In this document: positions 79-49,055 of the stretch, piece after piece
Position numbering within the stretch: position 1 is the first letter of the stretch
Layout of the letters: every line of letters starts with the position of its first letter
Source of the DNA: Saprospiraceae bacterium
GTDB taxonomy: Bacteria > Bacteroidota > Bacteroidia > Chitinophagales > Saprospiraceae
Direction of reading: 5' to 3'
Assembly: GCA_020628095.1 (NCBI GenBank)
Contig: JAHDFP010000012.1
Coordinates: 161 to 64,160 of the forward strand
Length of the DNA stretch: 64,000 nucleotides
Translations under genes and position numbers: made by a program
The notes under the pieces: generated by a model
Told to the model about the DNA's origin: nothing
The model's database searches: none
What the model saw: the letters and a program-made list of their open reading frames with translations, nothing else

Positions 79-1716
<1,638 letters not shown>

Positions 1717-4465: not shown

Positions 4466-4504
4466 CCTATGTGAAATAAGGCCCCATTACAATACACCTG
4501 ACTA

Positions 4505-7674: not shown

Positions 7675-7694
7675 AACACTTGATTCTAAAGTTG

Positions 7695-7702: not shown

Positions 7703-7866
7703 CTATAAATGGATCATAGAAGTGACATAATGGCAGGAATGTGGTGGGGGATTGAGATATTACTATTTCTTATTCTTCTGTTACTTTTTTCCGTTAGAAT
7801 AGTAAACTAAAGATACTTAGACAGCAAACCGCTCCGCTTACCTGTCCGGCCACCCGCTTCTTTACA

Positions 7867-7951
7867 TTTTTTTTCATTTTGAGCTTGCCGAAAAATCTTC
7901 AGAGCAGTAGGAATAACCCTGAAGATCTCTCCACAAGGTCGAGATGAAAAA
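7867..7951. repeat. Single copy of the ~80-bp palindromic element
   Basis: The left arm TTTTTCATTTTGAGCTTGCC and the right arm ending AAGGTCGAGATGAAAAA enclose CTTCAGAGCAG...CTGAAGATC. It sits in the gap between miaB and the T9SS cargo gene (7703-8150). The rest of that gap shows no gene; a minus-strand frame of 91 codons across it is built from the repeat. Confidence 0.85.
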
Positions 7952-8150
7952 GTATCTGTGTAACATTAACAAAGAGGCCGAGCCCGTCGAATGTTTGTGG
8001 GTGGCGGGGGCGGCACAGGGTATAGCCTTACATTGAACAAGATTTTTTTGGTTCGTTTTTTTATCGAATGAAAAAAATGAACTGAAAGGTATAAAAGGAT
8101 AGCATTTTGCACCGATGAGATTATCCAAAAACAAAGAAAATAACAACACC

Positions 8151-17996: not shown

Positions 17997-18078
17997 ACTT
18001 ATTTTTGTTTGCCAAAAACTATAATTAAGTTCTATCTTAAGTGTTGACATCAGAACCAAATATCTGATTCCAAAAAAA

Positions 18079-18750
18079 ATGAAAGTACAAGATTCCATAG
18101 TCCGCCTTCTAACCTTTAGGTTGAAAAGAGAAGACATGTTGCTATTCAATAATCGCCATTTTATTGCTGGGCTAATAGGAACATGGCTCGTAGGAATGGG
18201 GCGCTACTGGGATGACCCTGGCGCCAAAATGCTGCAACACCTTGGAATGGGTTCGGTTATTTACATTTTCGTAATGGCAGGACTTATATGGCTCATTGTG
18301 CTTCCATTCAGAATCAAAGGATGGAAATATTTTACTGTTCTTACTTTCGTTTCTCTCACTTCGTTTCCTGCTATTTTTTATGCGATACCCGTAGAACGTT
18401 TTTTGACTATAGAAACCGCCAATACAATTAATGTTTGGTTTCTGGCTATCGTGGCGGCATGGAGACTGGGACTGCTTTATTATTTCCTCAGAGAGTTTAC
18501 ACAATTATCCGTAGGCAAGATACTAACCATTACGCTCATGCCGGTCTGTTTAATAATTTCTGCACTTACCGCATTGAATCTCCATCGTGTTGTTTTCAAT
18601 GTTATGGGAGGGGTCAGAAATCCGACTCCACATGACTCGGCTTATATCGTATTACTGATACTTACGACAGTCTCTGTAATTTTAATTGGGCCGCTTATTA
18701 TTGCCTATTTTGCTTTTATATATCAGAAGGCGAAAAATTTGAGAAAATAA
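18079..18750 (+). CDS. Multi-pass membrane protein, unrecognised
   Basis: A 223-residue protein with about six hydrophobic segments (around 30-48, 60-78, 84-103, 115-133, 142-162, 188-213) and short loops. Basic residues at the N-terminus (RLLTFRLKRED) and the C-terminus (YQKAKNLRK) suggest both ends are cytoplasmic. It has the general look of small Yip1-like or DUF membrane proteins, but no signature was recognised. It lies 84 bases before the macrodomain-like gene on the same strand. Both are more AT-rich than hutI, so the two may have arrived together and may work together. Function unknown. Confidence 0.8.
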   Translation: MKVQDSIVRLLTFRLKREDMLLFNNRHFIAGLIGTWLVGMGRYWDDPGAKMLQHLGMGSVIYIFVMAGLIWLIVLPFRIKGWKYFTVLTFVSLTSFPAIFYAIPVERFLTIETANTINVWFLAIVAAWRLGLLYYFLREFTQLSVGKILTITLMPVCLIISALTALNLHRVVFNVMGGVRNPTPHDSAYIVLLILTTVSVILIGPLIIAYFAFIYQKAKNLRK

Positions 18751-18834
18751 GAACAGCTTACGCAAGTCAGAAAAAAAGATAGTCAAATAAACAGATTAAC
18801 CGACTCATCTTAGGTTATTATAAAAACAAAATCC

Positions 18835-19824
18835 ATGTGGTTCGAAAAATTAACAGGATTCCAAGAAAGGTCAGCAGATTATGTACGTGATAATCTTGAG
18901 GTGGAAGGAGATACTTTTATTTCTAAAGCCAATGACCAAAAATTTACTTTTGGTCATTTAGAAATACCGACTCTCCAAGAATTAAAAGCGCAATGTCCAC
19001 CTATAGAAACATATAATGACAAAATCAAAGTAGAGGAACTTGTGGCAGATGTAAGAGATTTGCATTGTCAGATCGAAAATAAAAACGCGCTATTTCAAGC
19101 AGCTTCTCAATTCAATTTATTGGAGATGATAGACCCTTCTATTTCTCCCGAAAATGGAATAGATAGATATGAAAACGATTATACTCAAGGACCCGCTTGT
19201 GCCATAGCCTGTGGTTCAGGAACAATTTATAGAAACTACTTCGTCCCAGTTGGAGACCAAATAGGTCAAACCAGAAGCAATCAAATTGATTGTTTAGATC
19301 TTATAGGACAAGAACTCAAAAATGATGAATTCAAATATTGGAGTATGCGAAATGGATATGCCCTATTTGATGAAAAAGGTTTGTTTGCATTGAATAAAAA
19401 AATTGCATCTCTTAATAGCACGGAACGAGAAGCGCTTAAACAAAAACTAAAAACAGGAATACAATGGAATACCGAGGTCACTATATCCAAGTCCAAGCAT
19501 AGAGTATCTCAGATATATTGTTCTGCCTTGCCCGTCGCCTATTGTGCTACCGATCAAATATATTGGGAATACTTTTCAAGAATAATCTTAGAAGCAACTT
19601 ACGAATCTACCCTTTATGCCGCCTTGATCAATTTAGAAAAATATAATTCTAACAAAGTCTTTTTGACGCTAGTAGGAGGCGGTGCATTTGGTAATGCGGA
19701 ATATTGGATATTGGAGTCCATGCGAGATGCCATTAGAAAATTTAGGTATACACCCTTGGACATAAAAATTGTCAGCTATGGTCACTCTAATGATAATCTG
19801 ATCGAATACTTAAAAGATCTATAA
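18835..19824 (+). CDS. Macrodomain-like protein (putative ADP-ribose-binding fold)
   Basis: A 329-residue soluble protein with no signal peptide or membrane span. Several blocks resemble a divergent macrodomain: FQAASQFNLLEM (87-98), in the place of the family's asparagine-rich loop; TQGPACAIACGSGTIYRNYF (118-136 region); and near the end KVFLTLVGGGAFGN (274-287) followed by a helix and a beta strand DIKIVSY. That end mirrors the GxGxFG phosphate loop and final strand of ADP-ribose-binding macrodomains. If right, it could bind or remove ADP-ribose or bind related nucleotides. The match is by pattern only. An alternative is an unrelated Rossmann-like enzyme. It is preceded by a membrane-protein gene 84 bases upstream. 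Confidence 0.6.
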   Translation: MWFEKLTGFQERSADYVRDNLEVEGDTFISKANDQKFTFGHLEIPTLQELKAQCPPIETYNDKIKVEELVADVRDLHCQIENKNALFQAASQFNLLEMIDPSISPENGIDRYENDYTQGPACAIACGSGTIYRNYFVPVGDQIGQTRSNQIDCLDLIGQELKNDEFKYWSMRNGYALFDEKGLFALNKKIASLNSTEREALKQKLKTGIQWNTEVTISKSKHRVSQIYCSALPVAYCATDQIYWEYFSRIILEATYESTLYAALINLEKYNSNKVFLTLVGGGAFGNAEYWILESMRDAIRKFRYTPLDIKIVSYGHSNDNLIEYLKDL

Positions 19825-19859
19825 AAAAAAATCAAGGACTGCCACTAACGTGGCAATCC
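19822..19859 (-). terminator. Rho-independent terminator for the minus-strand lipoprotein gene
   Basis: A stem of ten positions with one mismatch (19836-19845 with 19850-19859) and a TAAC loop. On the minus strand it is followed by nine T (complement of 19822-19830). It ends the 19877-20464 gene and could also stop transcription from the converging plus-strand gene. Confidence 0.8.
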
Positions 19860-19876
19860 CCGATACTCTTTATAAA

Positions 19877-20464
19877 TCAGTAATAAGACTCAGAATTATT
19901 ATCCATAGGGAATCCCAAGTTGTCTATAGTACCCCAGTAAAATCTATGCGTACCTCTCCACCATGTTCTCGTGCATAATATCTGAGATGTAACAGCAGTA
20001 ATAGAAGAATATCTGTTTCTATTTTTACTTTTTATCCTCGGATTAGCAACTGGAGTCCAGACCGTTGGTCCTACTTGGTTGTAGCCATGATGACAGAAAT
20101 TCAAAGTTCCTATCTTTTGCGGTGTAGACTCACTCTCCAGTCTTTTCATATACTCTATTACCGCAGGATCGTCATCTTCCATATTGACCAAATCTAAATC
20201 TTCTACTATTTTCATTTCTCTATTGAGAAAATCAAATTTCTCTACGGCTTCGAGATATTTGTTTTTATCGATAGACTTAAGGTAGTCCAGTATCTCATCT
20301 TGCGTGTTAAAGTTAACCACGTCTTGCCCCTCTATCATAATGCTGTAACCTTCTATCTGATCCATCAGAGAAGATTCCTTAGTGAGACTTTCGTCAGTAG
20401 AGCAAGAAGTGACTAATAGGCCTGCTATGAGCAAGCATCCGATTGACTTAAATACATTTTTCAT
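19877..20464 (-). CDS. Putative lipoprotein, unrecognised
   Basis: 195 residues from the ATG at 20464, which opens onto a lipoprotein signal (MKNVFKSIGCLLIAGLLVTSC, lipid-anchored cysteine at 21); the frame upstream of it has no signal character. The first half of the mature protein is acidic and helical, with repeated short D/E-rich segments resembling a propeptide. The C-terminal half is basic and aromatic (RIKSKNRNRYSS, CTRTWWRGTHRFYWG) with two cysteines. No domain recognised. It stands alone on the minus strand, closed by the hairpin at 19822-19859. Confidence 0.75.
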   Translation of the reverse strand: MKNVFKSIGCLLIAGLLVTSCSTDESLTKESSLMDQIEGYSIMIEGQDVVNFNTQDEILDYLKSIDKNKYLEAVEKFDFLNREMKIVEDLDLVNMEDDDPAVIEYMKRLESESTPQKIGTLNFCHHGYNQVGPTVWTPVANPRIKSKNRNRYSSITAVTSQILCTRTWWRGTHRFYWGTIDNLGFPMDNNSESYY

Positions 20465-20807
20465 GTTCTTTATTTTTTGGTTAAATAGAAATTGGATCAA
20501 CTTGATAACTACCAAATTGATTTTTATGTCAACATTAAATCTATGCAAGATCACCACAGCGAGATAAAAATTGTGGGGATCGCGTGCTTTGAGTTCGTGA
20601 ATGTTATCTTTTAGTGAGGGAATTAAAAGATGAGAATTTCTTTGTATTAGTCACTTGGGAGAGGTATAATATTTTTTTTCAAAAATCTAATTCTACTAAT
20701 GGTTACCTTTTGATTTATTCAGTTATTAATAAAGGTATCTTAGATAAACTCAGATAAGAAATCCAATTTTTTTAAGTATTGATTCCTAGTGTATTAAAGA
20801 AAATAAG

Positions 20808-21149
20808 ATGCAAAAGAAAATTGCGATATCATTAAGGACAGGAATAGAATTCATCAAACTGGAAGACATCTATTATTGCAAGGCGATGGATAACTATACC
20901 ATACTCTATCTGGAAAACGACAAGAAGGTCGTCTGCAAGTCCCTCAAGAATTTCCAAGAACCTCTGGAGAACAATGGTTTCTTTCGTGTATCAAGATCTT
21001 ATCTCGTCAACTTAAAATATATCAAATCACTCATCCTCGGAAAGAAGTCTTCTGTCAGATTAGAAAACGATATCAATATTATCCTCAGTCGCAACAACAA
21101 AAAGAAATTCATAGATACCATTTATCAGAATTCCATTATACATGTGTAG
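20808..21149 (+). CDS. Stand-alone LytTR DNA-binding regulator
   Basis: A 113-residue protein that is almost entirely a LytTR domain: GIEFIKLEDIYYCKAMDNYT, then SLKNFQEPL and the typical FRVSRSYLVNLKYIKSL. LytTR domains bind DNA as ten-stranded beta folds and usually follow a response-regulator receiver; here no receiver is present, so its signal must act another way. It sits 280 bases upstream of the propeptide/peptidase pair on the same strand and may control it. An inverted repeat (ATCTTTTA 20606-20613, TAAAAGAT 20624-20631) lies in its upstream gap. Confidence 0.9.
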   Translation: MQKKIAISLRTGIEFIKLEDIYYCKAMDNYTILYLENDKKVVCKSLKNFQEPLENNGFFRVSRSYLVNLKYIKSLILGKKSSVRLENDINIILSRNNKKKFIDTIYQNSIIHV

Positions 21150-21301
21150 TGACTTAACTACTTGGTCTCTTAGTATAAAGAAAATCCATTACTGATTTTT
21201 TCTGATGATATAGTTTTTTTTCGCTTAACTCATCATCGACGTTTTATTACCATAACTTAAATTTTCACTAGCCTAAGTGCTAATGCTTTATAGGCAATCC
21301 T

Positions 21302-21333
21302 CCCCTAACCAAAGGGGCAAAACCCCCTTGCCC
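21302..21333 (+). promoter_or_regulatory. Two mutually exclusive hairpins upstream of the peptidase operon
   Basis: CCCCT (21302-21306) can pair with AGGGG (21313-21317). GGGCAA (21315-21320) can pair with TTGCCC (21328-21333). The two stems share bases 21315-21317 and so exclude each other, an attenuator-like arrangement about 95 bases before the next start codon. There is no clear T-run after either stem. The role is speculative. Confidence 0.25.
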
Positions 21334-21428
21334 AAAAGAGAATTTCACTTGTATACCCGCGTCTTGATTCTATTAAAATTGTAACGACAAACGAAACCAT
21401 TTTTTAACAATCAAGATTTTTTAAAAAG

Positions 21429-22541
21429 ATGAAAATTAAACAACAAAAAGTTCCTCCCAAACTGAGAAGGATCGCCGCTCGGCACTTAGAGTCTATCCGT
21501 GGCACGGGTATGGCGCTCAATGCACAGGACCTGTATTTGTCAGATACGGTCTGTCCTATTTATCGTCCTGACATCAAGGAGCCTGCTTACTACGAGTTCC
21601 AGATTATCAAAGAAACCAGATCTAATGTAGACAACAGATTAGACCTTACAGAAAAGATAGGTAAGATCAATCTCTACTCTCCTGCCTCTGGTCTCAAAGA
21701 AATCTATGGTACACCAGAAGCCATTGCCAAATTCAAAACTGAATACTCGGTAAAATTCAAAAGTGGCGTCCAAGGATTTATTATCGTGTCTGCGGACAAG
21801 CATGACTTCCCTATTACACATTGGAGTATGGAATCAGAGCCGCCGAGTTTCTTATTAGAGCAAGAAGCCTCTCAGAGTCGATTGAATCTTCATAAAATAT
21901 ATAAGGTAGATGCACTCTCTTATGTAGGAGAAGATAAGGATGGCAAAGAGGTCGCCACTCTGGGCCAAAAACCTCCTATCATAGAAGGTCTCATGGCTGA
22001 TCTCTCTCGACAAGCGGGCAAAATAAGCAGCGTAGAAATAGCCAACACTGCCTCTCGTAGGATCAATGACTCTGTCAAGATCAGACCAGGTAGAATGATA
22101 ACCAAAGGACCTAAAGCCAAGGACTACAAATTCCTGAGTAAGGACTGGGGTAACATCAAAAAGAACTTTGTCAAAAGTTATAAGCCGCTCATGCAGCAGC
22201 TAGAAAAAAGTGCCGCACAGGTCTGGGAAAAAGAAACTATGATAGATGAGATGGGCGAAGGCATATTGGCAGGCGAACAGTTTTTTATCCCTGTGCTAGA
22301 AAAAGATTTTACAGTAGAAATCTATGGCGAAGCAAGTGAGCATACTGTACTGCGCGTCGTCAAGAGACCTAATGGCATGTCGACTATAGAGCTGACTACC
22401 AAAACACTTCCATCGTCTGGTGAGCTGGATTTATTCGTGCAGATAAGATATAAGAACTCGGACGAACTCATTAAACTTTTTGTGGTGAATCCAGATTCGC
22501 CGACAGAATCTATTAATAACCTTAAAAACGAAGAATCATGA
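21429..22541 (+). CDS. Putative propeptide/inhibitor-like partner of a cysteine peptidase
   Basis: A 370-residue protein with no signal peptide. Residues about 90-150 contain GVQGFIIVSADKHDFPITHW, which resembles the conserved core of C10-type (streptopain/Spi) propeptides and inhibitors, where a strand reads GFVIVSGD. The N-terminus is basic (KIKQQKVPPKLRRIAARHLE); the C-terminal ~100 residues look like a beta-rich domain. The stop overlaps the start of the peptidase gene by the four bases ATGA, so the two are translated together. I infer that this protein chaperones or silences the peptidase in trans. It could instead be a carrier or immunity-like protein. No other domain recognised. Confidence 0.6.
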   Translation: MKIKQQKVPPKLRRIAARHLESIRGTGMALNAQDLYLSDTVCPIYRPDIKEPAYYEFQIIKETRSNVDNRLDLTEKIGKINLYSPASGLKEIYGTPEAIAKFKTEYSVKFKSGVQGFIIVSADKHDFPITHWSMESEPPSFLLEQEASQSRLNLHKIYKVDALSYVGEDKDGKEVATLGQKPPIIEGLMADLSRQAGKISSVEIANTASRRINDSVKIRPGRMITKGPKAKDYKFLSKDWGNIKKNFVKSYKPLMQQLEKSAAQVWEKETMIDEMGEGILAGEQFFIPVLEKDFTVEIYGEASEHTVLRVVKRPNGMSTIELTTKTLPSSGELDLFVQIRYKNSDELIKLFVVNPDSPTESINNLKNEES

Positions 22542-23191
22542 GTTGGACATATTATTGGGCACGTGGAGGTCATGCTGCACAACCACGTTATAATCAATTT
22601 CAATATAAAGGCTGCGCTGTCGGATGCGGCGCCGTCGCATGGGGTATCTTATTCGGATGGGCAGATAGACAAGCCGCTAGCGGCAACTCTTACTGGGCTC
22701 CAAGATGGGGTCTCTACCGACAGAATGGAGGACGCGGTGCCAATGCCGTCGCACCAATAATCATGGATAATGGCGTCAGGAATATGATCAGGGAAATCAG
22801 AGACCACATAGGCACATTTTGTATTGCTGGTTCCGGTGCGACTTTTCCTTGGGATATGCATCAGGCGCGCAGATATCTAAATGGTCGTACAGGCACAACA
22901 CTGAGTACGCATTATAACTCTTTCGGGATACACGAAGGTCGCCTCAGAGAGAAAGCCCGTAACTCGATAAGAGACAGAGAGACACCTGCAATCATAGGTA
23001 CAGGCTGGCTCAATCATTACCCTGTCGCTTATGGATATGCATGGCAAAGAAGAACAGTAAGAAAATGTTTCATATTTTGCTGGAACACCACCGTCTACGA
23101 TCGATACTTTTACGTCAATCAAGGATGGGGCGGTAGTGGCAATGGATGGGTCAATGCTTCGACTTGGTTTGCAGGACAGATATACCCATAG
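22538..23191 (+). CDS. Papain-like cysteine peptidase domain protein
   Basis: A 217-residue protein that reads as a bare catalytic domain. The cysteine block is YKGCAVGCGAVAWGILFGW with the probable nucleophile at C30 and Q23 as a possible oxyanion residue. The histidine is in LNHYPVAYGYA (H160), and the end has FYVNQGWGGSGNGWVN with the third catalytic residue N194. That order (Cys, His, Asn-x-GWGG) is the plan of C10 and related papain-fold peptidases. There is no signal peptide, unlike streptopain. Translation is coupled to the upstream propeptide-like gene, and a strong hairpin follows at 23217-23251. Confidence 0.75.
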   Translation: MSWTYYWARGGHAAQPRYNQFQYKGCAVGCGAVAWGILFGWADRQAASGNSYWAPRWGLYRQNGGRGANAVAPIIMDNGVRNMIREIRDHIGTFCIAGSGATFPWDMHQARRYLNGRTGTTLSTHYNSFGIHEGRLREKARNSIRDRETPAIIGTGWLNHYPVAYGYAWQRRTVRKCFIFCWNTTVYDRYFYVNQGWGGSGNGWVNASTWFAGQIYP

Positions 23192-23216
23192 GTCTTTGAT
23201 CTAGGATAAGTTGACT

Positions 23217-23251
23217 AGGTCCTCCCTTATAATATATCTTTGGGAGGACCT
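23217..23251 (+). terminator. Strong hairpin after the peptidase gene
   Basis: Perfect 10-bp stem (AGGTCCTCCC with GGGAGGACCT) and a 15-base loop, 25 bases after the peptidase stop. No T-run follows, so it may terminate weakly or protect the 3' end of the message. Confidence 0.6.
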
Positions 23252-23266
23252 GTTATAATAGTAGAT

Positions 23267-23710
23267 ATGCTCATGATGACTAAATATATTTTCATTATCG
23301 TAATCCTGACAAGTACAAGTATGTGTAATAAGAACGCATTGACCATAGACGCTGACGAAGTCTATAGTATAAAAGAAGTGACTTCCTCTTCTTTATTTGA
23401 GACCAAATGTGGTGAGACATCCGAGATAGAAAATGAGATGATTACGATACGTGGTTTGTTTTCCACCTTACATTATACACCAGAGGCTTATCAGCTATAC
23501 CTGCTTGACCCCAATCAAAAGGATAGAATAGAAACAAGGTACAACAAAGACCTCGCAGAAACCATCGAAACAAGAGTAGACAAATTACAAGACAACCAGC
23601 CGATACAAGTCACTGGAAAAATCATCGGTTATGATCAGCCCAAGAACTTCGGCTGCAAGAGGGTTCATTATCTACAGATAATGAATGCCGACGACATCAT
23701 AGTAAAATAG
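23267..23710 (+). CDS. Small putative lipoprotein with OB-fold-like domain
   Basis: 147 residues from the ATG at 23267. The frame can be read from a TTG at 23240, but that lies in the hairpin and the ATG opens directly on a hydrophobic leader (MTKYIFIIVILTSTSMC). The lipobox is weak (TSMC, cysteine 20). The mature part has the strand pattern ITIRGLFSTL... IQVTGKIIGYD... VHYLQIM, which resembles the small OB-like domains of Bacteroidota lipoproteins. Function unknown. It follows the peptidase pair on the same strand beyond the hairpin. Confidence 0.65.
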   Translation: MLMMTKYIFIIVILTSTSMCNKNALTIDADEVYSIKEVTSSSLFETKCGETSEIENEMITIRGLFSTLHYTPEAYQLYLLDPNQKDRIETRYNKDLAETIETRVDKLQDNQPIQVTGKIIGYDQPKNFGCKRVHYLQIMNADDIIVK

Positions 23711-23954
23711 TACACAGAAAAATTATTTCTATAATTCCCAAGTCGTGATCTGACTTCTGGCAGAATATATGAGATAGTTTGCTACACAGTTTTCCGTATA
23801 AAAATTGACATAGAGCTTAGTATATGCTAAGCGACTGATTCAGCATACAGGCTTGGACATATCTGTCCATTGTCCTCTATTACCGTACAACATAATATAG
23901 AAAGAGCTAACAACCATTCTCTTTATTAGGTAACCAAACTCATAACTAAATCAC

Positions 23955-24485
23955 ATGAGCATCCAAGTCTACAAAGTCCATCATAATGGCACACATGACC
24001 TCTCTAATCAAATGGTCAAAATACCTGGACTAATCGTACAGTTCCAAGTAGCGAAACCCTCACATGTTTTTATATCAGGGAGCGTGGGTTACGAGCATCG
24101 TAAGATACCTCTCAGCATACATAACAAAACTAAAGGTGAAGTAAAGGCCATGAAGAAAATTTATGGAGAAAATCTGACGGAATATGCCATCGGCATAACG
24201 GGACGCCTTGAGCACATAGACGAAAAAGGAACAAGACAATGGATCAAAGGATCAAAGTGGGGACCTAATATCAATGGCGGCTCTCAACACTATGGCATCA
24301 TACCTATCAGTGGATACCTAGAGGTGAATGCTGGCACGCACGAAATATCCTATTGGGCAGAAGCTCATACAGACGCTCCAGCTTATGCCTACCCTGTAGA
24401 AATCCAAGGCGCATCAGATAGTGACAATCCAGGAGGCACGACCGACCCCTATAACCAAATGATCATAAGAATAGAAGAAAAATAA
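23955..24485 (+). CDS. Hypothetical beta-rich protein
   Basis: A 176-residue protein without signal peptide or membrane span. It is rich in alternating hydrophobic strands (LIVQFQVAKPSHVFISGSVG, YGIIPISGYLEVNAGTHEISYW), suggesting a jelly-roll or C1q/TNF-like sandwich. The C-terminus is a Gly/Asp/Pro turn followed by MIIRIEE. No family recognised. It sits between two predicted lipoprotein genes on the same strand, with gaps of 244 and 60 bases, and may belong to a surface-associated set. Confidence 0.65.
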   Translation: MSIQVYKVHHNGTHDLSNQMVKIPGLIVQFQVAKPSHVFISGSVGYEHRKIPLSIHNKTKGEVKAMKKIYGENLTEYAIGITGRLEHIDEKGTRQWIKGSKWGPNINGGSQHYGIIPISGYLEVNAGTHEISYWAEAHTDAPAYAYPVEIQGASDSDNPGGTTDPYNQMIIRIEEK

Positions 24486-24545
24486 AATCTAAAAAATTAA
24501 AACACATATAGTCTTAGCGTTAGTAATAATCAAAAAAACCAAATC

Positions 24546-26459
24546 ATGAATAATCACACTTTTACATCAACCATACTCTGCAAAACATTAATACTTGCAT
24601 TCATCATTTTCACCATAGGATGTAAATATTCTAAGCCAAAATCAGAAAAAGAAAATTGGAATTGGGTGCACTCTTCTATATCATCAAAAGAAAAAGCCAA
24701 TCTCAATGAATATGTGAATAATATGTTCAGCAGAATTTCTTCGGCATATAAGAAAAATGACGAACATACTTTTTATAAAACCACAATAGAACTACTCGTA
24801 GAAAGCAATCGATATCCCATCTTTTACTTAGACTCCACATGGCTTGACCTCAAAGACAGATTGGTCAAAGACGGGATAGAGCCGTACATGTCTTATCTGT
24901 TAGATTATGGTTTTCGCTTAGAAAAAATTAGGACTGAGCAGTCGATTAGTATTGTGGACGAAATAAGAGAATTACTGAAGAGTGCAGAGGTGCAGCGTTT
25001 TGATCATAAGTTTTTCTTTAAAAATAGCAAAGATGAAATGTACTATGCCTACTCTGGTAATATGGGCTGGGCCATCACCAATCTGCTTTACTCCGATTAC
25101 GGCAGTTCCTATATAAGTCAGTATGATGCAGAATTGACAGATTTCGTATCGCTCGTCGGTGATGCGCTCAATTGTAAGGCCTGCGCACTTGGCACGATGA
25201 CCGATAACGCTAAGATCATAGGAATGCAGCTAGCCAATAATACTGAGCAAATAGGATCTAACTCATCGGCGTGCGATGTTATTAACGGCCTAATGGCCGC
25301 CAGCCTCAACGAACAATTACTCAATCCCAGTAGCAGACCAGATAACAGATCTGACAACTTCTGTAAGGCTATAAGAGATGGTAATAATTCTGGATTCTCA
25401 CAGTTCAACTGTATGATAGAGGCAATCAATGAGTACAAGCAAGATACTGACGCTTCTCCACTGGGCAGCGGTGCAGCACTTATAAGAAGACTCGAAGAAT
25501 ATATAGAATGTCGCCAAAATAATGGTGGAGGTCCACTACGAAATTCGCCTGTTAAAGATAAGATGGGATGGTACTTCGAAGGAGATAAAAACCAATGTAC
25601 TCAAGAAAGCCCTTGCACTAGTCAAGATGAAGAAGGAAATAGGAAGGAGAAAGTAGAATCTACAATAACCAAGGATGGTGAAGAAGGTAAGCAAACTACA
25701 ATCACTACTATCGATAAAAGGGGTGTTACAAGAAAAAGAACTACTATATTCCGTAGTAAGAACCGTAGAGTCGAAAAGCAAGAAGAATATGATGAAAATG
25801 GAATCAGAACATTTGCTCGCGAAACTGACGAGTCATATGATGACCAAGGAAATAGAATATCCTGGAGATATCGAGAAAAACAAATAGATGGGGATAAGGA
25901 ATTAGGTAGGGTAATAAAAGAAGGAAACAGAGGTACTACAGTACAATATTTTAGAGGTGAGAGATCGCGAACCGGCCGCATGATTCATAAACCGATTACC
26001 AAAAAGGAATACGATCGAAGAAGAAGAAATTATCCAAAAAACAACTCCACCCCGAACCCTGAAAGCAATTTTGATCCTTGCGCATACATGCTATCAGAAA
26101 AGGAAGCGGAAATAATAAAGCGCGGAGGCGACCTTGGTCCATTAATTAATCCTGATCCATCTAATCCTAATACAGATCCTGCTCTGACCAGACTCATAGA
26201 TAATATCGCCCGTTGTCTGATAGGCAACCTAGGTAACCGTGTAGAATGCGACCCCAGAATCAGATGCGCCGACCAAACCTGTGACTGTGGGAAAATATAC
26301 GAAATAGAACTGGTCGATCTACCTATCAAGAATCGCTGCAACCAAATACAATGCGGACCTGATCAAAAACTAAATCCACTGACGTGTCAGTGTGTGGGGT
26401 ATGATGATGTCGGTGAGTTGATTGGTGTTACTCCAGGGTTATATGGGTCGCTGCGGTAG
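24546..26459 (+). CDS. Large lipoprotein with YD-repeat-like centre and Cys-rich tail
   Basis: A 637-residue protein with a lipoprotein signal (LAFIIFTIGC, cysteine 26). The first ~300 residues are helical and end in a region with several cysteines. The centre, about 370-470, is a run of charged beta repeats (KRTTIFRSKNRRVEKQEEYD, RISWRYREKQIDGD) similar to YD or MORN-type repeats. The C-terminal ~70 residues hold about ten cysteines in close spacing (CADQTCDCG, CNQIQCG, LTCQCVG), likely disulfide- or metal-linked. No sorting domain at the end. Function unknown; it would be anchored in the outer membrane. Confidence 0.7.
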   Translation: MNNHTFTSTILCKTLILAFIIFTIGCKYSKPKSEKENWNWVHSSISSKEKANLNEYVNNMFSRISSAYKKNDEHTFYKTTIELLVESNRYPIFYLDSTWLDLKDRLVKDGIEPYMSYLLDYGFRLEKIRTEQSISIVDEIRELLKSAEVQRFDHKFFFKNSKDEMYYAYSGNMGWAITNLLYSDYGSSYISQYDAELTDFVSLVGDALNCKACALGTMTDNAKIIGMQLANNTEQIGSNSSACDVINGLMAASLNEQLLNPSSRPDNRSDNFCKAIRDGNNSGFSQFNCMIEAINEYKQDTDASPLGSGAALIRRLEEYIECRQNNGGGPLRNSPVKDKMGWYFEGDKNQCTQESPCTSQDEEGNRKEKVESTITKDGEEGKQTTITTIDKRGVTRKRTTIFRSKNRRVEKQEEYDENGIRTFARETDESYDDQGNRISWRYREKQIDGDKELGRVIKEGNRGTTVQYFRGERSRTGRMIHKPITKKEYDRRRRNYPKNNSTPNPESNFDPCAYMLSEKEAEIIKRGGDLGPLINPDPSNPNTDPALTRLIDNIARCLIGNLGNRVECDPRIRCADQTCDCGKIYEIELVDLPIKNRCNQIQCGPDQKLNPLTCQCVGYDDVGELIGVTPGLYGSLR

Positions 26460-26481
26460 AGTGGTTTTGCAGAATCAGGGA

Positions 26482-26495
26482 AATTACATGTAATT
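26482..26495. promoter_or_regulatory. Perfect 14-base palindrome before the kelch lipoprotein gene
   Basis: AATTACATGTAATT is fully self-complementary and lies 35 bases before the next start. It may be a dimeric regulator site; AT-rich palindromes also arise by chance. Confidence 0.3.
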
Positions 26496-26529
26496 AAATA
26501 CTTCTTATTATAAATTAAAAAATAACATT

Positions 26530-27507
26530 ATGAAAATCAATACAATCGAAATTTTGTGCTTCTTGCTAATAATTTCATTTAGCTCTTGCACACCAAAGTG
26601 GCATTTAAAAGCTGATTGCCCAAATATGAAAATAGGCTCATCGGCTTCTTGGGGGATTGATCCAAATAATAATTTCAGAATATATGCCATCGGCGGAGAC
26701 AATCAAAACTCTGTTAATAATTTGGTTGACGGGTTCGACGTTTTTAATAACACCTGGTCCGCATTTAGTCCAATGATAGAAGAAAGAACAAGACACGCCT
26801 CTGTAACACTCGTTAATCTGAAATCTAATTCCAACAAAAAACTTTCAAAAAATTCTGCGCAATTATTTAGCGATGTCAAAATTTATGTTTTCGGTGGTAT
26901 GAAGGGAAATATTACCTTAAGTGCATGCGAAGTTTATGATACAAGAACGGACACATGGAGCTCGATTGCGCCTATGTCAATAGCAAGGCATGGATTAGCA
27001 GCCGCAATTGGTGGCAATGGGAAAATATATGTTTTTGGAGGTGAAAATGGGAGCACTACGTTCGATTCTGTAGAAGAATATAATCCTAATACAAATAGTT
27101 GGACAACTAAAAGTGTTATGCCCGATAAAAGAGCATGGTTAGGTGCCGCAACAGGGCAAGATGGTTATATTTATTTAACAGGTGGAGTTTCTATGGGTTC
27201 TGAAGAAGATAATCTGTGGAGGTATGACCCAAATACGGATTCCTATACTGTCTTACCTAATATGCCATCCAATTCATCAAGGCACGATTCTGCGGCAGGT
27301 CATGGAGATAAAATTTTTGTATTAGGTAATGTCTCATACCAATTTGACATTTCAGATAATGCTTGGTCGACAATCGCTACAATGCCCTGTGATTATAGAA
27401 TTGATGGAGCGGCAGAGTCGTTTATTAATGGAATATACTTTATTGGCGGATATAGAAGATTTAATCCTCCGTTTAATTGTACTGAGGTTTATTCCAAAGG
27501 GTTATGA
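26530..27507 (+). CDS. Kelch-repeat lipoprotein
   Basis: A 325-residue protein with a lipoprotein signal (LLIISFSSC, cysteine 20). At least five kelch motifs follow, each with paired glycines then a tyrosine and tryptophan: IYVFGGMKGN...CEVYDTRTDTWSSI, IYVFGGENGS...EEYNPNTNSWTT, IYLTGGVSMG...WRYDPNTDSYT, and IYFIGGYRRF at the end. They would close into a beta propeller of five or six blades. Such outer-membrane propellers usually bind sugars or proteins; the partner is unknown. A strong terminator follows at 27526. Clearly AT-richer than the housekeeping genes. Confidence 0.88.
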   Translation: MKINTIEILCFLLIISFSSCTPKWHLKADCPNMKIGSSASWGIDPNNNFRIYAIGGDNQNSVNNLVDGFDVFNNTWSAFSPMIEERTRHASVTLVNLKSNSNKKLSKNSAQLFSDVKIYVFGGMKGNITLSACEVYDTRTDTWSSIAPMSIARHGLAAAIGGNGKIYVFGGENGSTTFDSVEEYNPNTNSWTTKSVMPDKRAWLGAATGQDGYIYLTGGVSMGSEEDNLWRYDPNTDSYTVLPNMPSNSSRHDSAAGHGDKIFVLGNVSYQFDISDNAWSTIATMPCDYRIDGAAESFINGIYFIGGYRRFNPPFNCTEVYSKGL

Positions 27508-27525
27508 AATACTGAGGATAATAAC

Positions 27526-27556
27526 GAGACTGTCCTACTTGGGCAGTTTCCTTTTT
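27526..27556 (+). terminator. Rho-independent terminator of the kelch gene
   Basis: A 10-bp stem with G-U wobbles (27526-27535 with 27541-27550), a 5-base loop TACTT, then CTTTTT. It lies 19 bases after the stop codon. Confidence 0.85.
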
Positions 27557-27706
27557 GAGATGTTTCCTTCATATTTAATCTATTATTATTAAAGAATTCT
27601 TAAAGGCTAGGGAACATGAGTTATACTTAATAATGAAGAAGCACTCACCAATATCTGCAATATCTCATAAATAGTTTAGGCGACAAGTATTGCATATCAA
27701 GGATAA

Positions 27707-28474
27707 CTTTCTCGACCCTGTGGGGAGATCCTCAGATTTTGTTTTCATGTACTTAATATTTTTCGACAAGCTCAAAATGAAAAAGGAAATGCCTATTCCA
27801 TAGAGGAGTTATTATTGACGCGTATTTTCTGACTTACCATCTAATAGGCAGGAATATTATTGTCTCCTAGACTTTGCACTATAGTGCCCCTCGCCCATTG
27901 GCTACAACCAGACTCTGGTTCTTTTTTCTTTTTCATCTCGACCTTGTGGAGAGATACTCAGATTTTGTTTTCATGTACTTAAGATTTTTCGGCAAGCTCA
28001 AAATGAAAAAAGGAAAAGCCCATTCCATAGAGGAGTTATTATTGTCGCTTGTCTTCTGACTTACCACCAGGTAGGCAAGAATATTATTGTCTCCTAGACT
28101 TTGCACTATAGTGCTCCCCTCGCCCACTGGCTACAACCAGACTCTGGTTCTCTTTTTCTTTTTCATCTCGACCTTGTGGAGAGATACTCAGACTACCGTT
28201 CTTACAATCTGATGATTTTTCGGCAAGCTCAAAATGAAAAAAGGAAATGCCTATTCCATAGAGGAGTTATTATTGACGTGTATTTTCTGACTTGCCGTCT
28301 GGTAGGTAAGATATTATTGTCTCCTATATTATGCACTATAGAGCTTCCCTCGCCCACTGGCTACAATCAGACTCTGTTTCTCTCTTCCCTTTTTCATCTC
28401 GACCTTGTGGAGAGATCCTCAGACTACCATTATTACAATCTGATGATCTCTCGACAAGCTCAAAATGAAAAAAA
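27707..28474. repeat. Tandem array of ~230-bp units, each ending in the palindromic element
   Basis: Palindromic elements lie at 27707-27785 (partial), 27929-28011, 28159-28242 and 28390-28474. Between them a spacer of ~145 bases is repeated three times (27786, 28012, 28243 onward), with CCATAGAGGAGTTATTATTG, TTGCACTATAG, and CCCACTGGCTACAA recurring in order. Unit lengths are about 226, 231 and 232 bases. The array fills most of the gap between the kelch gene and the SIR2 gene (27508-28535). Short plus-strand frames at 27874-28059 and 28101-28496 are products of the repeat. Confidence 0.9.
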
Positions 28475-28535
28475 GGTATATATGATTAGCGAATGATAGA
28501 CGGACTAAGACAACTCACCCTACTCCATACACATA

Positions 28536-31500
28536 TTATTTCTTGCCATGACACTGCTTATACTTCTTACCACTACCACAATGGCAGGGATCATTACGGC
28601 CCACTTTCTTTTCCTTTTTTATTGGCTCATTAAGTATCTCTGTGATAGGTATATGGGCTTGCTGATCTGGATCGAGCTTGTCATATTCTTGTCTGGCGAG
28701 TGCTCGGAACTTTTGTAATCCTATGGTGTCTTTTATATTTTTGATTTTACGGTTTATGCTTCCTCCGAAACCTTTTGCTTTTAATGTATTAAATATTGAT
28801 AGCGATTGAAAATAGTAACTGAGGGCAACATCATATTTCTGTATAGTTAAATCCGCGTGGATTAAACCAATGTTTGATAAACTCATAGCTATACCTTTTT
28901 TATCACCAATTTCTTTCGAAATCTCTAAACTCTTCTTCGCATAGTAAAGACTTCTTTTTTCATCTCCTTTAACAAGATGTAGTTCTCCAATAGAATTATA
29001 GCAAATTGAAATTCCCGACTTGTGTCCAATTGCTTTAGAATTTTTTAAACTTTCACTAAAGTTTTTATTGGCTTTTTTTGTTTTGCCCTGACTTAGATAT
29101 AAATGACCTATGTAATTCAATGCTGTTGTCGCAATACGTTTGTTTTGAATTTGTTCACTAATCTTTAAACCTAAATTAAACTCTTGTAAGGCCTCTTGGT
29201 AAAAACCTGAAGTATCATATAAATACCCCATGTTTATGTGTGTTGTAGAAAGGCCCTCTTTATCATCAATACTTTTTCTTATTTCTAATGATTCTTGAAA
29301 TTTTAGAAATGAGTCTTTGTAATCACCGAAAAATAAGAATACTAGTCCTATATCATTAACCGCTCGTGCCTGCTCCTTCTTAAGGTTTGGTTTATTCTTA
29401 GTGTATTCATAGGCTTCTTCAAAATACGGCAAGGCTTCTTTGACATCCCCTCTTCTAAACATAATTTCAGCATACTTTATCATGCCTTCAGCCTTTATTT
29501 TTTCATTAATTTCTGGTGTTTTGGCTTGATTATAGTATTTCTGGGCTTCATCCCATTTTCCTCTGATTTCATTGATATCACCGCAGTAGATATCGAAAAG
29601 TGGATTGGATATATGGAGTTCTCTTAGCTTATCTATAAGTTCTTGTACGAGGTCCAGTTGCCCTTGTATGATAAAATTTCGACCACGTTCTTCTATTTCT
29701 TTTCCTACACGTTGCCAGTCCTCAGCTTTGGATAGATGGTAGAATATGCGCTCTTCCAGTATTATGTCAGGATTTTCTGATCTAGCGGAGATATAATAGT
29801 CTGCTATTTTTTTGTGCAGTGGTTCTTTATAGTGCAACTTCTTATAAGAGAAAGCTCTGACAAGAGGATGTAGTTGGTATTGTCCGTTACTATAAGTGAG
29901 CAGATTCTTTCTTTGGAGTTTTCGCGGTGCTTCTCTGAGGATTTCTTCTGGGAGTATGGCTTTGACCACCTCTTCGTCTATACTCCCGTTGAATACAGAA
30001 AACTGTCGCATAAACTGTTTTTCTTCTTCTGTAGCATCAGGTCTGCTGAATATCGCATTGAGCAATCGCTCACTGATATCCTGATCGCTCGTGGCATTGA
30101 CTATTTTAGAGGTGATGTCTTCTGGTCTTTCGCCTTCACTCAGCAGCAGTATTGCAAAATCAATGGCTAGGGGATAGCCTTGTAGTTCGTCACAGAGCTT
30201 AATTAATATTTTATCATCTAAAGATTTTAGATTAGTATAACTATGATCTATGAGTGCTCGCGCATATTTTAGTCTATTATCATTATCCTCTATATTTTCG
30301 ATATGGATTCGTTTCGGTGTGAGGTCGACACTGGTAATATTATCTCTATCTATGACGATGACATGAGCCGCCTTAAGATATTCCTGCACGAAAACAAGGA
30401 ATTCTTTAAAGACAGGTTTGTCATTGGTCTCCTGAAAGTTATCCAAGAAGAGGTAATAGTTATTTTCTTCCAGCTTATCCTTGAAGGCACTGAATTTTTC
30501 TCGATTGGTCTTACTTTTGCCCTCTAATAGCTCTGGATAACCCGCAGACGTAACTAAGGTATCAAAGTGCGACTCTGGCTTACAATCAAACCATAAGACC
30601 TTATCCTCAGGTATAAACTCCTGGATACACTTAGATACAAATTGTGTCTTACCGATACCACCACCGCCATCTATGGTTAAGAAACGAATATTATTATCTA
30701 AAGCAGATCGGAATTCTGCCATCTCCTGACCTCTTCCTGAGAAGTAAGGTTTCGGTTTGGGAAATAAATTGAGTTGGTTTTTAGCTTTTTTGGTTTGTGG
30801 GCTATCTATGGATGCGACAATTTCACTAGCCTCTATAGCATGATCTTTGGAGTTTTTTATGGCTAATAACTCGTCCAGTAGTTTGGCCGTATCGTTGATA
30901 GGGTCTCCCTTGATCTTTATGATATCGACCCCATCCAGTTTTTTTTCTGTGATTATAAAATTCTGAGCATTTGTATTACTGAACATTCCACTTACCTCAC
31001 TGATAATATTATTGACATAAGGGTCGGTCATACTGGTCCCTAAGAATAGGATAACATGATTAGCCACTAGTTCTCGTAGTCTCATGACGACAGCAGATTC
31101 ATTTTTATATTGGGCTTCATATTGGGATTCGTAGAAAATTATGTCATCTATCTCATTTATGTTACCGTGTATTTTTAATAGATAAGAATTTTGCCTGTAG
31201 AGGTCAGAAAGTGGGATTATGCTCTTGTTAGTTATTCTATCAATACCGGACCTTTTAAATTCCTCACAGGCTTCAAATAGTTGGTCGTAATTGGGAGTGA
31301 TAACCTTCTTAGTGACTTGCCATATTTTGGAGTGTAGTGGTAAGGGGGTATCCTCACTAATCAATTTTTGAGCATTGGTACTCAATTCTTGTTTTAGTAC
31401 TGGATTGACATGGCCAGTAAGGTTATTATTCTGAATATAGTTGAGCACATCAAAAATGGCTCTATTTGACGATTTGTTATTGAATATGGCCTTTAATGCC

Positions 31501-31670
31501 GTACCAGGACCGTCATCATAATTAGTTACTCTATCTATAATTTTTCCTACCAGTTCTCCCCATAGAGGCAACCCAGCACTCTTAGATATTCCAGCCCCTG
31601 CGAATATGACCAGATTATCATTCGTTACGGCTTCCCGTAGAGAACTATGTGCGTCATTCAGTAAACTCAT
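28536..31670 (-). CDS. SIR2-STAND-TPR-SEC-C protein, candidate antiphage NADase sensor
   Basis: A 1044-residue protein with four modules. (1) A SIR2-like domain, about 1-270, with [13 protein letters not shown] (GAGIS 25-29), PNYDQLFE (N127), the catalytic-type histidine in LLKIHGN (H169) and [12 protein letters not shown] (211-216). (2) A STAND/NB-ARC NTPase, about 305-560, with Walker [10 protein letters not shown] (334-342) and Walker B YLFLDNF (406-412). (3) A long set of TPRs, about 640-980. (4) A SEC-C zinc motif at the end ([17 protein letters not shown]). In known antiphage STAND proteins the TPR part senses a phage protein and the N-terminal effector then depletes NAD. The catalytic asparagine and histidine positions are kept, so activity is plausible. 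It stands alone on the minus strand, beside a repeat array. Confidence 0.85.
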
Positions 31671-39643: not shown

Positions 39644-41176
39644 ATGCGAATATTAAAAGATAAAAGACCTCTTGATAAACTTTATAAAAGAAGAAATAGA
39701 TACGACTTACAACCAGATTATCAAAGAGATGAAGTTTGGAAAAAAGAGGATAAACAAAAGCTCTTAGATACAATTCTAAAAAAATGGGATATACCCAAAA
39801 TCTACATTCATGTTATTGATGAAGAAAATTTCGAAGTTGTAGATGGTCAACAAAGATTAACAGCTATTTATGACTTCTATGATAATGAATTAGAACTCTA
39901 TGAAGAATTTTCAAAAGAGTATGGAGGATTAACTTATGAAGAACTACCAGATAAAATCAAAGATATTTTTGATGATTATGAAATAGACTTTGTATTAATT
40001 GAAAATGCCAACAGTGAAGAATTAAAGGAGCTATTTGCTCGACTTCAACTTGGTAAGCCTCTAAATTCAGGAGAAAAATTAAATGCTATTCATGGTAAAC
40101 TTAGGGACTTCGCAAAAGAACTTACCAAATCCAATTTCTTTAAATCAACAATCTCAATTCGTGATACTCGACATTCACATTTAAGTATTGCAGGGCAAAT
40201 CTGCATTCTTGGAATTAAAGGAATAGACAATTTGAAATTTAAAGACATTAATAATTTATTCTCATCTCATGTCAATTTCAATGATAATTCTGAAAACGGA
40301 AAACGAATAAAAAATATAATTTCTTTTTTGGATTCATCAATTGATCAAGACTTTAAACTTATTAGAAATCGAGCATCTGTAACAACAATTTTTGCTCTTG
40401 TTGCTAATATGAATAAAAACGGATTTGAATTAACAGCAACAAATGCGGAAAAAATAGGTAAATTTTATATGGATTTTTTAAACGAGCTACGAATCGAAAT
40501 TGAAAAAGGAGCAAAATCTAAACAACCTGAATTTATTTTATATCAATCCAATGTTACACAAGGGGCTGATAGTAGCACATCTTTAAGAAAACGGTTATCT
40601 ATCATAAGAACTAAGTTAATAACCAGATATCCGGAACTTCAAAAATACTTTGAGTTACAAGATTCTGAACGGGAATTAATAAATCATAGAAGAAAAGAGA
40701 CTATATCCACTATCACAAATCAATGTTTAATTTTAGTAGGACGAATTAATGACATTTATAAAGGAAAAGAAGGTATTGACTTGTTCAAACCTACAAATGA
40801 GAATTTCAAAAGTTCTGTTTCCATCAATAAGCCAACCAGTAATGAATTAGAATTCAAGTCCTTTATTGATAGTCTCTATAAGATTATTTATGAAGGTTCA
40901 GGAGCATTAAAAAGAATTCCTACGGACTTACTATTAGATGATTCCATCTATTTTGATATCAAGCATTTAAGAACTGATTATTTTCATGACATTGAACATG
41001 GAACTGATAATAAGATTGAAAAGAAGCAGAAAACAATCAGCTCCATATATCAAAAATATACTGGAAAAAAGTCCTTATCTGAATTAGAAACAGGAGATCT
41101 AATAAAGTTTCAAAAAATCTTTCTTAAGAATTTAGAAACCGAGTTAAAACAAGTTGAAAAAATGATAAAGAATTAA
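39644..41176 (+). CDS. DUF262 family protein (GmrSD/ParB-nuclease-like)
   Basis: A 510-residue protein. The N-terminal ~200 residues are a DUF262 domain: LQPDYQRDEVWKKEDKQKLLD near 25, and the hallmark VVDGQQRLTAIYDFY with DGQQR at 67-71, then LFARLQLGKPLNSGEKL. This domain binds nucleotides and in the GmrSD restriction enzymes powers cleavage of modified phage DNA. The C-terminal half is helical with a late DYFHDIEHG segment; no HNH (DUF1524) nuclease motif was recognised, so it is not a complete GmrSD. It is strongly AT-rich compared with the adhesin gene and opens an island with the PLP enzyme 80 bases downstream. A defence role is inferred. Confidence 0.85.
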   Translation: MRILKDKRPLDKLYKRRNRYDLQPDYQRDEVWKKEDKQKLLDTILKKWDIPKIYIHVIDEENFEVVDGQQRLTAIYDFYDNELELYEEFSKEYGGLTYEELPDKIKDIFDDYEIDFVLIENANSEELKELFARLQLGKPLNSGEKLNAIHGKLRDFAKELTKSNFFKSTISIRDTRHSHLSIAGQICILGIKGIDNLKFKDINNLFSSHVNFNDNSENGKRIKNIISFLDSSIDQDFKLIRNRASVTTIFALVANMNKNGFELTATNAEKIGKFYMDFLNELRIEIEKGAKSKQPEFILYQSNVTQGADSSTSLRKRLSIIRTKLITRYPELQKYFELQDSERELINHRRKETISTITNQCLILVGRINDIYKGKEGIDLFKPTNENFKSSVSINKPTSNELEFKSFIDSLYKIIYEGSGALKRIPTDLLLDDSIYFDIKHLRTDYFHDIEHGTDNKIEKKQKTISSIYQKYTGKKSLSELETGDLIKFQKIFLKNLETELKQVEKMIKN

Positions 41177-48502: not shown

Positions 48503-49055
48503 TTTTTCATTTTGAGCTTGCCGAAAAATCTTCAGAGTGCAAAAATCGTAACCTGAAGATCTCTACACCAGGTCGAGATGAAAAACCCATTTACAGTAGT
48601 AAAAAAGAAACCGAGCTAAGTCGTATCCAATACAACGCAGTAGGGAGAGTTCTTTTCCTTTTTTTCATTTTGAGCCTGCCGAAAAATCTTCAGAGCACAA
48701 AAATCGCAACCTGAGGATCTCTACACCAGGTCGAGATGAAAAACATATTTACAATAGTAAAAAAGAAGCTCAGCCAAGTCGTATCCAATGCACCGAAGTA
48801 GTGAGCATTCATTTCCTTTTTTCATTTTGAGCCTGTCGAAAAATCTTCAGAGCACAAAAATCGAAACCTGAAGATCTCTCCACAAGGTCGAGATGAAAAA
48901 CCCATTTGCAATAGTAAAAAAGAAACCGAGCCAAGTCGTATCCAATGCACCGAAGTAGTGAGCATTCATTTCCTTTTTTCATTTTGAGCTTGCCGAAAAA
49001 TCTTCAGAGTATAAAATCATAATCTGAGGATCTCTCCACAAGGTCGAGATGAAAA
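48503..49055. repeat. Tandem array of four palindromic elements, ~157-bp period
   Basis: Elements at 48503-48585, 48659-48743, 48817-48900 and 48974-49055 share the left arm TTTTTCATTTTGAGC and the right arm ending GGTCGAGATGAAAA. Spacers between them are also similar (AGTAAAAAAGAA, GCCAAGTCGTATCCAA, TGAGCATTCATTTCC). Start-to-start distances are 156, 158 and 157. They fill the gap 48409-49186. Confidence 0.9.

What the first reader, a model, noticed from the sequence alone, without database searches (positions are those of the whole stretch)
28536..31670. Lone SIR2-STAND-TPR-SEC-C protein with the build of an antiphage sensor
Four modules are visible in one 1044-residue chain: a SIR2-like NAD-binding domain with the asparagine (N127) and histidine (H169) kept, a STAND NTPase, about ten TPRs, and a SEC-C zinc motif at the end. 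Known SIR2-STAND (Avs-like) systems use the TPR part to sense a phage protein and then deplete NAD. The SEC-C tail is less common in described defence STAND proteins and could bind a ribosome or nucleic acid target. The gene is alone on its strand beside a repeat array, a common setting for single-gene defence systems.
Basis: partly seen in the sequence, partly recalled or inferred. Interest (0 to 1): 0.75.

Follow-up and report, generated by a model that had tools for sequence, protein, structure and literature searches.

The report
Bacterial immune sensor with SecA-like tail
This gene encodes a probable suicide-type antiphage sensor that destroys NAD when triggered, and it belongs to a small group of bacterial sensors that swap their killing part but keep a zinc-binding tail resembling that of the cell's own protein-export motor SecA.

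Summary
Confirmed: 28536-31670 (minus strand) is one intact 1044-residue SIR2-STAND-TPR-SEC-C protein. Small errors: the catalytic histidine is H168, not H169; the neighbouring repeat belongs to a genome-wide family and marks nothing. An NAD-cleaving, NLR-like antiphage sensor is the best reading; no function was tested.

One carries EAD11; the other a weakly supported EAD1-like domain, next to a trypsin-type protease gene. A third (32%) carries TIR. Four SIR2-STAND proteins share only 19-22%. The SEC-C tail follows the sensor, not the effector: five of five C-termini found have it (two came from searches that used the tail, one of these on a separate contig); eight more distant STAND relatives lack it.

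The five tails match the SecA of their own genome better than under any other of 120 pairings, without consistent signs of recent DNA copying; one sensor gene lies just downstream of secA. The signal is small and post hoc, but makes a SecA-linked role for the tail (ribosome docking, guard or decoy) testable. SecB was not found in this genome.

The parts
28536..31670 (-). SIR2-STAND-TPR-SEC-C gene, 1044 aa (P0001)
   Evidence: Open frame and translation; Pfam; AlphaFold2 model, mean pLDDT 76.7, pTM 0.50
30849..31670 (-). SIR2-like NADase effector, residues 1-274
31290..31292 (-). Codon of N127, the NAD-site asparagine of TPNYD
   Evidence: Invariant in 5 SIR2-STAND proteins; aligned to the ThsA position that is Asn in 6lhx and Ala in 8bto
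31167..31169 (-). Codon of H168, the catalytic His of the HG motif
   Evidence: aligned to KomC H146
29835..30773 (-). STAND NTPase (NB-ARC/MalT-like), residues about 300-612
   Evidence: Motifs; motif residues kept in SIR2, TIR and HNH-like relatives; fold match to 8bob chain C
30645..30668 (-). Walker A GGGGIGKT, residues 335-342
30438..30452 (-). Walker B LFLDN, residues 407-411
28680..29834 (-). Helical superhelix with TPRs, residues 613-997 (putative sensor)
   Evidence: Pfam TPR models; 20 helices in the model; MalT domain III and Rap/NprR matches
28539..28607 (-). SEC-C zinc-binding tail, residues 1022-1044, ligands C1029, C1031, C1040, H1041
   Evidence: PF02810 9.7e-9; present in the 5 C-termini of the group; 76% and 86% identity in residues 1022-1042 against G1006 and G1223

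Best explanation
A single-gene, NLR-like antiphage sensor of the abortive-infection type. At rest the TPR superhelix keeps the STAND ATPase closed. A trigger made or disturbed by infection is sensed by the C-terminal TPR-SEC-C half; the STAND exchanges nucleotide and oligomerises; the clustered SIR2 domains cleave NAD and stop phage production. It belongs to a small group of Bacteroidota sensors in which the same STAND-TPR-SEC-C core is joined to different outputs (SIR2, TIR, EAD11, EAD1-like with a neighbouring protease gene). The SEC-C tail most likely docks the sensor to a host partner that SecA's own tail also uses, the ribosome first, so the protein may watch translation or export. Shown here: architecture, conserved catalytic and Walker residues, different N-terminal domains on one core, conservation of the tail. 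Inferred: NADase activity, oligomerisation, phage trigger, ribosome or SecA link.
For: SIR2 pocket kept with DSR2/KomC/ThsA fold. STAND motifs and fold. Same core with other outputs: G1006 41% identity over 713 aa; G1223 40% over 799 aa with EAD11 2.2e-9; G869 37% over 487 aa with TIR_2 2.4e-9. Absent from 13 of 13 other genomes of the genus at E 1e-30 (completeness 53-98%). SIR2-STAND relatives: a Pantoea plasmid gene next to a tyrosine recombinase, with a retron-type HNH/ATPase pair about 5.6 kb on, and a Hymenobacter plasmid gene next to an integrase and a recombinase, with McrBC nearby. Tail in 5 of 5 C-termini; own-SecA pairing the best of 120, the partners being SecA. No SecB match in this genome. 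PMC6620043 (abstract and passages seen): the SecA tail binds 70S ribosomes, and 52 of the species surveyed without SecB keep it. PMC12931631 (passages seen): Avs5, a Sir2-STAND protein, hydrolyses NAD on jumbo-phage infection.
Against: No activity or phage test. PADLOC on 10 ORFs to the left (16749-27504) gave one weak hit, E 0.0025; ORFs to the right were not put to PADLOC. By Pfam the nearest restriction-like gene is GmrSD_N at 39644-41176, about 8 kb away. No integrase or transposase showed in the neighbours put to Pfam; no dedicated search was made. Neighbours of the sister genes include asparaginase, an amine oxidase, a phage-baseplate-type OB protein and PhyH, not known defence genes. 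The SecA-tail match rests on five short pairs, was noticed before it was tested, and is weak against plain residue frequencies (about 0.06 for 4 of 5 at the X site, my arithmetic from the counts). SEC-C is a common add-on motif: of 114 stretches in viral contigs 97 are on frames of 350 residues or less.
Confidence: 0.72

Rival explanations
1. Integrated decoy or guard: the SEC-C tail copies SecA's metal-binding tail so that a phage factor that binds, blocks or modifies SecA (or its partner) also hits the sensor and triggers it, as in plant NLRs with integrated domains.
For: The five tails match the SecA of their own genome better than under any other of 120 pairings; 9 of 10 residues at two informative sites agree. 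One sensor gene lies 576 bases downstream of secA on the same strand. In this genome only SecA and this protein have SEC-C. Guarding by a bacterial NLR-like protein has been proposed: bNACHT25 and DnaJ (PMC12169576, abstract seen).
Against: Five pairs, post hoc, the two sites chosen after seeing them; a shared binding partner, or shared descent, could give the same pattern. Two of 34 other Bacteroidota SecA tails match the window tail as well as or better than its own SecA. One search for phage proteins aimed at SecA listed three papers, none opened, none so titled; a search for integrated decoys with STAND and phage listed eight of 16 papers, none titled for bacteria's own defence.
Confidence: 0.25
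2. The SEC-C tail is a passive zinc knuckle that only caps or stabilises the TPR superhelix; sensing is by the TPRs alone, as in other STAND proteins.
For: SEC-C occurs on many other proteins. Linker and tail have middling confidence in the model (10-residue blocks from 1011 on: 62, 64, 77, 57). Distant STAND-TPR relatives do without it.
Against: The tail is the best-conserved stretch of the C-terminal half (76% and 86% against 36% and 39% in the TPRs), though this motif is conserved wherever it occurs.
Confidence: 0.3
3. It is an Avs5-type SIR2-STAND defence protein.
For: Same order of SIR2, STAND and C-terminal repeats; Avs5 is described as Sir2-STAND (PMC12931631, passages seen).
Against: No Avs-named model among the PADLOC hits up to E 1. 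The STAND is closest to EAD-STAND proteins and 19-22% identical to four other SIR2-STANDs. The main text of the Avs5 paper has no 'SEC-C'. No Avs5 sequence was compared.
Confidence: 0.08
4. A MalT-like regulator or signalling protein unrelated to phage defence.
For: STAND-TPR is the build of MalT (a far-below-cut-off MalT model match; folds).
Against: No DNA-binding domain among the Pfam hits; the output is an NADase fold with catalytic residues kept, and the sensor core is elsewhere joined to TIR or EAD11.
Confidence: 0.07

Closest known systems
Avs5 (AVAST type 5, Sir2-STAND)
   Same: N-terminal SIR2-like NADase, central STAND ATPase, C-terminal repeat sensor in one protein
   Different: No Avs-named PADLOC hit; a SEC-C tail that the Avs5 paper's text does not mention; HG motif kept, whereas about half of Avs5 have NG (PMC12931631, passage); STAND closest to EAD-STAND proteins
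ThsA (Thoeris), DSR2 and KomC SIR2 NADases
   Different: ThsA has a SLOG (STALD) sensor; DSR2 and KomC lack this STAND-TPR-SEC-C chain (recalled)
EAD-coupled STAND conflict systems (PMC7159879 and PMC8195603, passages seen)
   Same: AP-ATPase with C-terminal TPRs (PMC7159879); effector domains that replace one another, TIR and SIR2 among them (PMC8195603)
   Different: 'SEC-C' does not occur in either main text; here the effector is a fused SIR2 and no EAD is present
Bacterial NLR-like bNACHT proteins (bNACHT25, PMC12169576, abstract seen)
   Same: STAND NTPase linking a sensor to an effector; a host protein takes part in sensing
   Different: NACHT rather than NB-ARC/MalT-like NTPase; host factor is DnaJ
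SecA C-terminal metal-binding domain (PF02810)
   Same: Window tail identical to own SecA at 21 of 24 positions, CXCX8CH ligands
   Different: No SecA motor domain; joined to a STAND-TPR sensor

Membership tests
SIR2-like antiphage NADases (ThsA/DSR2/KomC type) | SIR2_2 fold with catalytic Asn and His | tested here: met
SIR2-like antiphage NADases (ThsA/DSR2/KomC type) | NAD hydrolysis on activation | not testable with these tools
   Needs an assay
STAND NTPases (NB-ARC/MalT class) | P-loop, Walker B, GxP motif, winged helix followed by superhelical repeats | tested here: met
STAND NTPases (NB-ARC/MalT class) | Hit to a Pfam NB-ARC, NACHT or nSTAND model | tested here: not met
   None listed for this protein up to E 1; relatives do hit NB-ARC or nSTAND. 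A weak-profile failure; motifs and fold are met
Avs5 | Match to an Avs5 profile | tested here: inconclusive
   No Avs-named model among 18 hits in PADLOC-DB; I did not check that such a model is in that release
Avs5 | STAND falls within the Avs5 clade | not tested
   No Avs5 sequence was at hand
SEC-C motif family PF02810 | CXCX8C(H/C) motif above the curated cut-off | tested here: met
   35.4 bits against 20.4
Thoeris ThsA | C-terminal STALD/SLOG domain after SIR2 | tested here: not met
   No STALD; the own-genome ThsA-like protein L104:7993-9480 does have it
EAD-coupled conflict systems | EAD fused to the STAND | tested here: not met
   No EAD in this protein. Sister G1223 has EAD11; G1006 only a weak EAD1 match, 0.048, under cut-off

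The most novel reading that the evidence does not exclude
The group is a bacterial counterpart of plant NLRs with integrated decoys: NLR-like sensors with interchangeable killing outputs whose SEC-C tail imitates, and keeps pace with, the metal-binding tail of the host's own SecA, so that phage interference with SecA or with its ribosome docking trips an NADase, TIR or protease output.
Probability: 0.22. Interest if true: 0.88.

Novelty: new variant of a known kind. Interest (0 to 1): 0.64.

Why it matters
How bacterial NLR-like proteins pick their trigger is open. Here the sensor half is conserved while the output changes, and the sensor ends in a motif whose partners in SecA are known (ribosome, SecB). 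That gives a concrete, testable candidate for what a bacterial NLR watches (the export or translation machinery). If the tail really follows the host's SecA, it would be a bacterial example of the guarding or decoy logic known from plant NLRs.

Tried and rejected
Rejected: SecB as partner of the tail in this genome (no PF02556 match; genome 98.7% complete by the tool). The CH ending as a SecA signature: 114 viral stretches carry the CH type; of the 114 frames one is SecA-like (L169) and one has a Walker A motif (L171, the contig of L010). Recent gene conversion from secA: at identical residues the third codon position agrees in 7 of 21, 9 of 20, 10 of 19 and 12 of 20 for own pairs of four genomes, not consistently above cross pairs (G869 not included). 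The repeat array as part of the system.

Led nowhere or weak: the genome-contig scan was swamped by SecA tails (the matches of all 80 loci kept lie in residues 937-1044; more matched than were kept). Phage records gave no match to residues 1-660; plasmids gave 141 records, one covering 80% or more; the STAND alone gave 3 plasmid records with short matches. In 80 Bacteroidota genomes, 62 with SEC-C, I read three further loci: G158 is SecA, and G127 and G156 are no STAND; the others were judged by frame length only. In the family search 128 of 298 genomes matched, most listed matches through the TPRs alone. The STAND tree has mostly weak forks, and no well-supported set holds the window protein. 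No clean empty site: in 7 of 8 relatives read, the genes matching 32020 and 34406 are followed by the one matching 15940, which in the window lies about 15 kb to the other side; the eighth is cut by its contig end. Foldseek 'pdb' was not run.

Literature, in an open-licence library only: no paper joining SEC-C to a bacterial STAND protein was seen in the listings (20 of 90 papers listed; 20 of 89; 1 of 1; 30 of 34; 15 of 890; 8 of 8); one of the last holds both 'SEC-C motif' and 'NB-ARC', a Chinese cabbage gene-mapping paper, which I did not open.

Full report

Active-site check. N127, Y128, D129, H168 and G169 are invariant among five SIR2-STAND proteins. In the PDB alignments H168 falls on H146 of KomC (my count), whose H146N mutant is deposited, and N127 on the ThsA residue that is Asn in 6lhx and Ala in 8bto. 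In Avs5, N110 and D112 of the Sir2 domain are needed for defence, and the HG histidine is asparagine in about half of the homologues (PMC12931631, passages); that these are the residues N127, D129 and H168 here is by motif, not by an alignment of mine.

Setting. The tandem array 27758-28473 (period 231, 3.1 copies) is built from a repeat with 65 matches in this genome and 13 core copies in the window where 100 shuffles give none; it is not a defence mark. PADLOC on 10 ORFs from 16749 to 27504 gave one weak hit. None of the 13 other genomes of the genus has the gene at E 1e-30 (completeness 53-98%). In relatives the right-flank genes are kept but the left side differs.

Relatives. A scan of 395 phylum genomes with residues 1-660 gave 4 with a match at 1e-15, own included; 395 class genomes with the STAND gave 2 at 1e-6, own included. 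None of the four shows SEC-C. STAND relatives with other N-termini: TIR in G456 and an HNH-like domain in G510 (HNH_3 0.0051, under cut-off).

The close group. Profile searches of 396 order genomes and 298 family genomes gave much closer kin of the STAND-TPR core. G1006: 963 aa, 41% identity over 713 aa, an N-terminal EAD1-like stretch (EAD1 0.048, under cut-off), STAND, TPR, SEC-C; the gene before it encodes a trypsin-type protease (Trypsin_2 1.6e-23) whose N-terminus matches EAD1 at 0.014, under cut-off and behind DUF5121 at 0.0064; BLAST does not relate the two N-termini, so the EAD1 link is only suggestive. G1223: 898 aa, 40% over 799 aa, EAD11 (2.2e-9), STAND, TPR, SEC-C, same strand and 576 bases downstream of secA (1557-4883, then 5460-8156). 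G869: TIR (2.4e-9), STAND, TPR, 37% over 487 aa, cut by the contig end; another contig of the same genome starts inside a TPR frame that ends in SEC-C and is 34% identical to residues 801-1042, plausibly the same gene. G1218: a C-terminal fragment with TPR and SEC-C. So five of five C-termini have the tail, but the G869 fragment was found by a SEC-C search and G1218 by a match that includes the tail; G1006 and G1223 were not chosen by the tail alone. Among the matches listed, only G000, G1006 and G1223 cover the whole core; G1268 covers most of it without SEC-C. That list is cut and scores three candidates a genome. The eight more distant STAND relatives read (Pantoea, Hymenobacter, G297, G403, G456, G510, G1268, IMG/VR L335) show no SEC-C (the ends of G510 and L335 read by eye).

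Effector swapping. STAND identity to the window protein: G1006 47.0%, G1223 45.8%, G869 32.2%, then 19-23% for the eight others, the four SIR2-STANDs at 19-22%. The SIR2 domain is 26-32% identical to those four. By path the tree puts G1006, G1223 and G869 nearest, but its forks are weak. So the SIR2 effector and the STAND-TPR-SEC-C sensor have different nearest kin among what was found, the sign of domain exchange.

The tail. In this genome SEC-C was found only here and in SecA, and no SecB. Against the SecA of the same genome (partners checked as SecA) the five tails score 99 identities summed over 24 positions; the mean over all 120 pairings is 92.8 and no other pairing reaches 99. The D/E site agrees in 5 of 5 and the X of KXCH in 4 of 5. 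I saw this pattern in four genomes before testing it (best of 24 pairings); the fifth was added afterwards and agreed. Limits: five pairs, related genomes, the two sites chosen after the fact, incomplete assemblies (G1218 77% complete), and 2 of 34 other Bacteroidota SecA tails match the window tail as well or better (a 35th tail is not SecA). Against the residue counts (H 18, Q 8, N 7, others 2 of 35), 4 of 5 at the X site has a chance of about 0.06 (my arithmetic). Third codon positions give no consistent sign of recent copying. A second SEC-C-tailed P-loop protein (985-residue frame; weak Cap4-nuclease match, 0.0065, under cut-off) lies on an IMG/VR contig and resembles the window protein only in the tail (L010), so the combination appears to have arisen more than once.

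Mechanism. By analogy with Avs5, DSR2 and MalT: autoinhibited STAND, trigger on the C-terminal half, oligomerisation, SIR2 clustering, NAD cleavage; none of this was tested. The SecA tail binds 70S ribosomes and is kept in many species without SecB (PMC6620043, abstract and passages), so docking to the ribosome or Sec pathway is my preferred role for SEC-C; guard or decoy is the bolder one. Guarding has been proposed for bNACHT25 and DnaJ (PMC12169576, abstract).

Verdict.

Noticed in passing
window 27758-28473, also near 3810-4374, 7925, 34121 and 48559-49048: Dispersed intergenic repeat with imperfect inverted arms (76-78% complementary), 13 core copies in the window and 65 matches in the genome
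   Followed up: partly
window 39644-41176 +: Protein with a GmrSD_N domain (3.1e-16), a possible modification-dependent restriction gene about 8 kb from the SIR2-STAND gene
   Followed up: no
L102:3931-5274 + (own genome, contig C32): 447-aa protein with SIR2_2 (1.9e-27) and TIR_2 (1.8e-14) in one chain, directly before an N6-methylase gene
   Followed up: no
L104:7993-11514 - (own genome, contig C30): ThsA-like SIR2-STALD protein next to a NADAR-domain gene (1.2e-36) and a Fic-domain gene: an NADase beside a NADAR protein
   Followed up: no
L010:642-3599 + (IMGVR_UViG_2734482251_000007): 985-residue frame: weak Cap4-nuclease match, P-loop NTPase (AAA_22 under cut-off), long C-terminal part and a SEC-C tail; similar to the window protein only in the tail
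   Followed up: partly
L336:1557-8156 + (G1223): secA followed on the same strand, 576 bases on, by an EAD11-STAND-TPR-SEC-C gene
   Followed up: partly
L300:7196-12741 + (G1006): Trypsin-type protease with a weak EAD1-like start, EAD1-like-STAND-TPR-SEC-C and an EAD11 protein (1.7e-23) in a row
   Followed up: partly
window 15940-39028 against relatives L132-L139: In 7 of 8 relatives read, genes matching 32020, 34406 and 15940 follow one another; in the window about 15 kb (16749-31670) separates 15940 from 32020: rearrangement or insertion
   Followed up: partly
L096:8157-20486 (Pantoea ananatis plasmid pOC5aB): SIR2-STAND gene next to a tyrosine recombinase, with a retron-type HNH/ATPase pair about 5.6 kb on
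   Followed up: no
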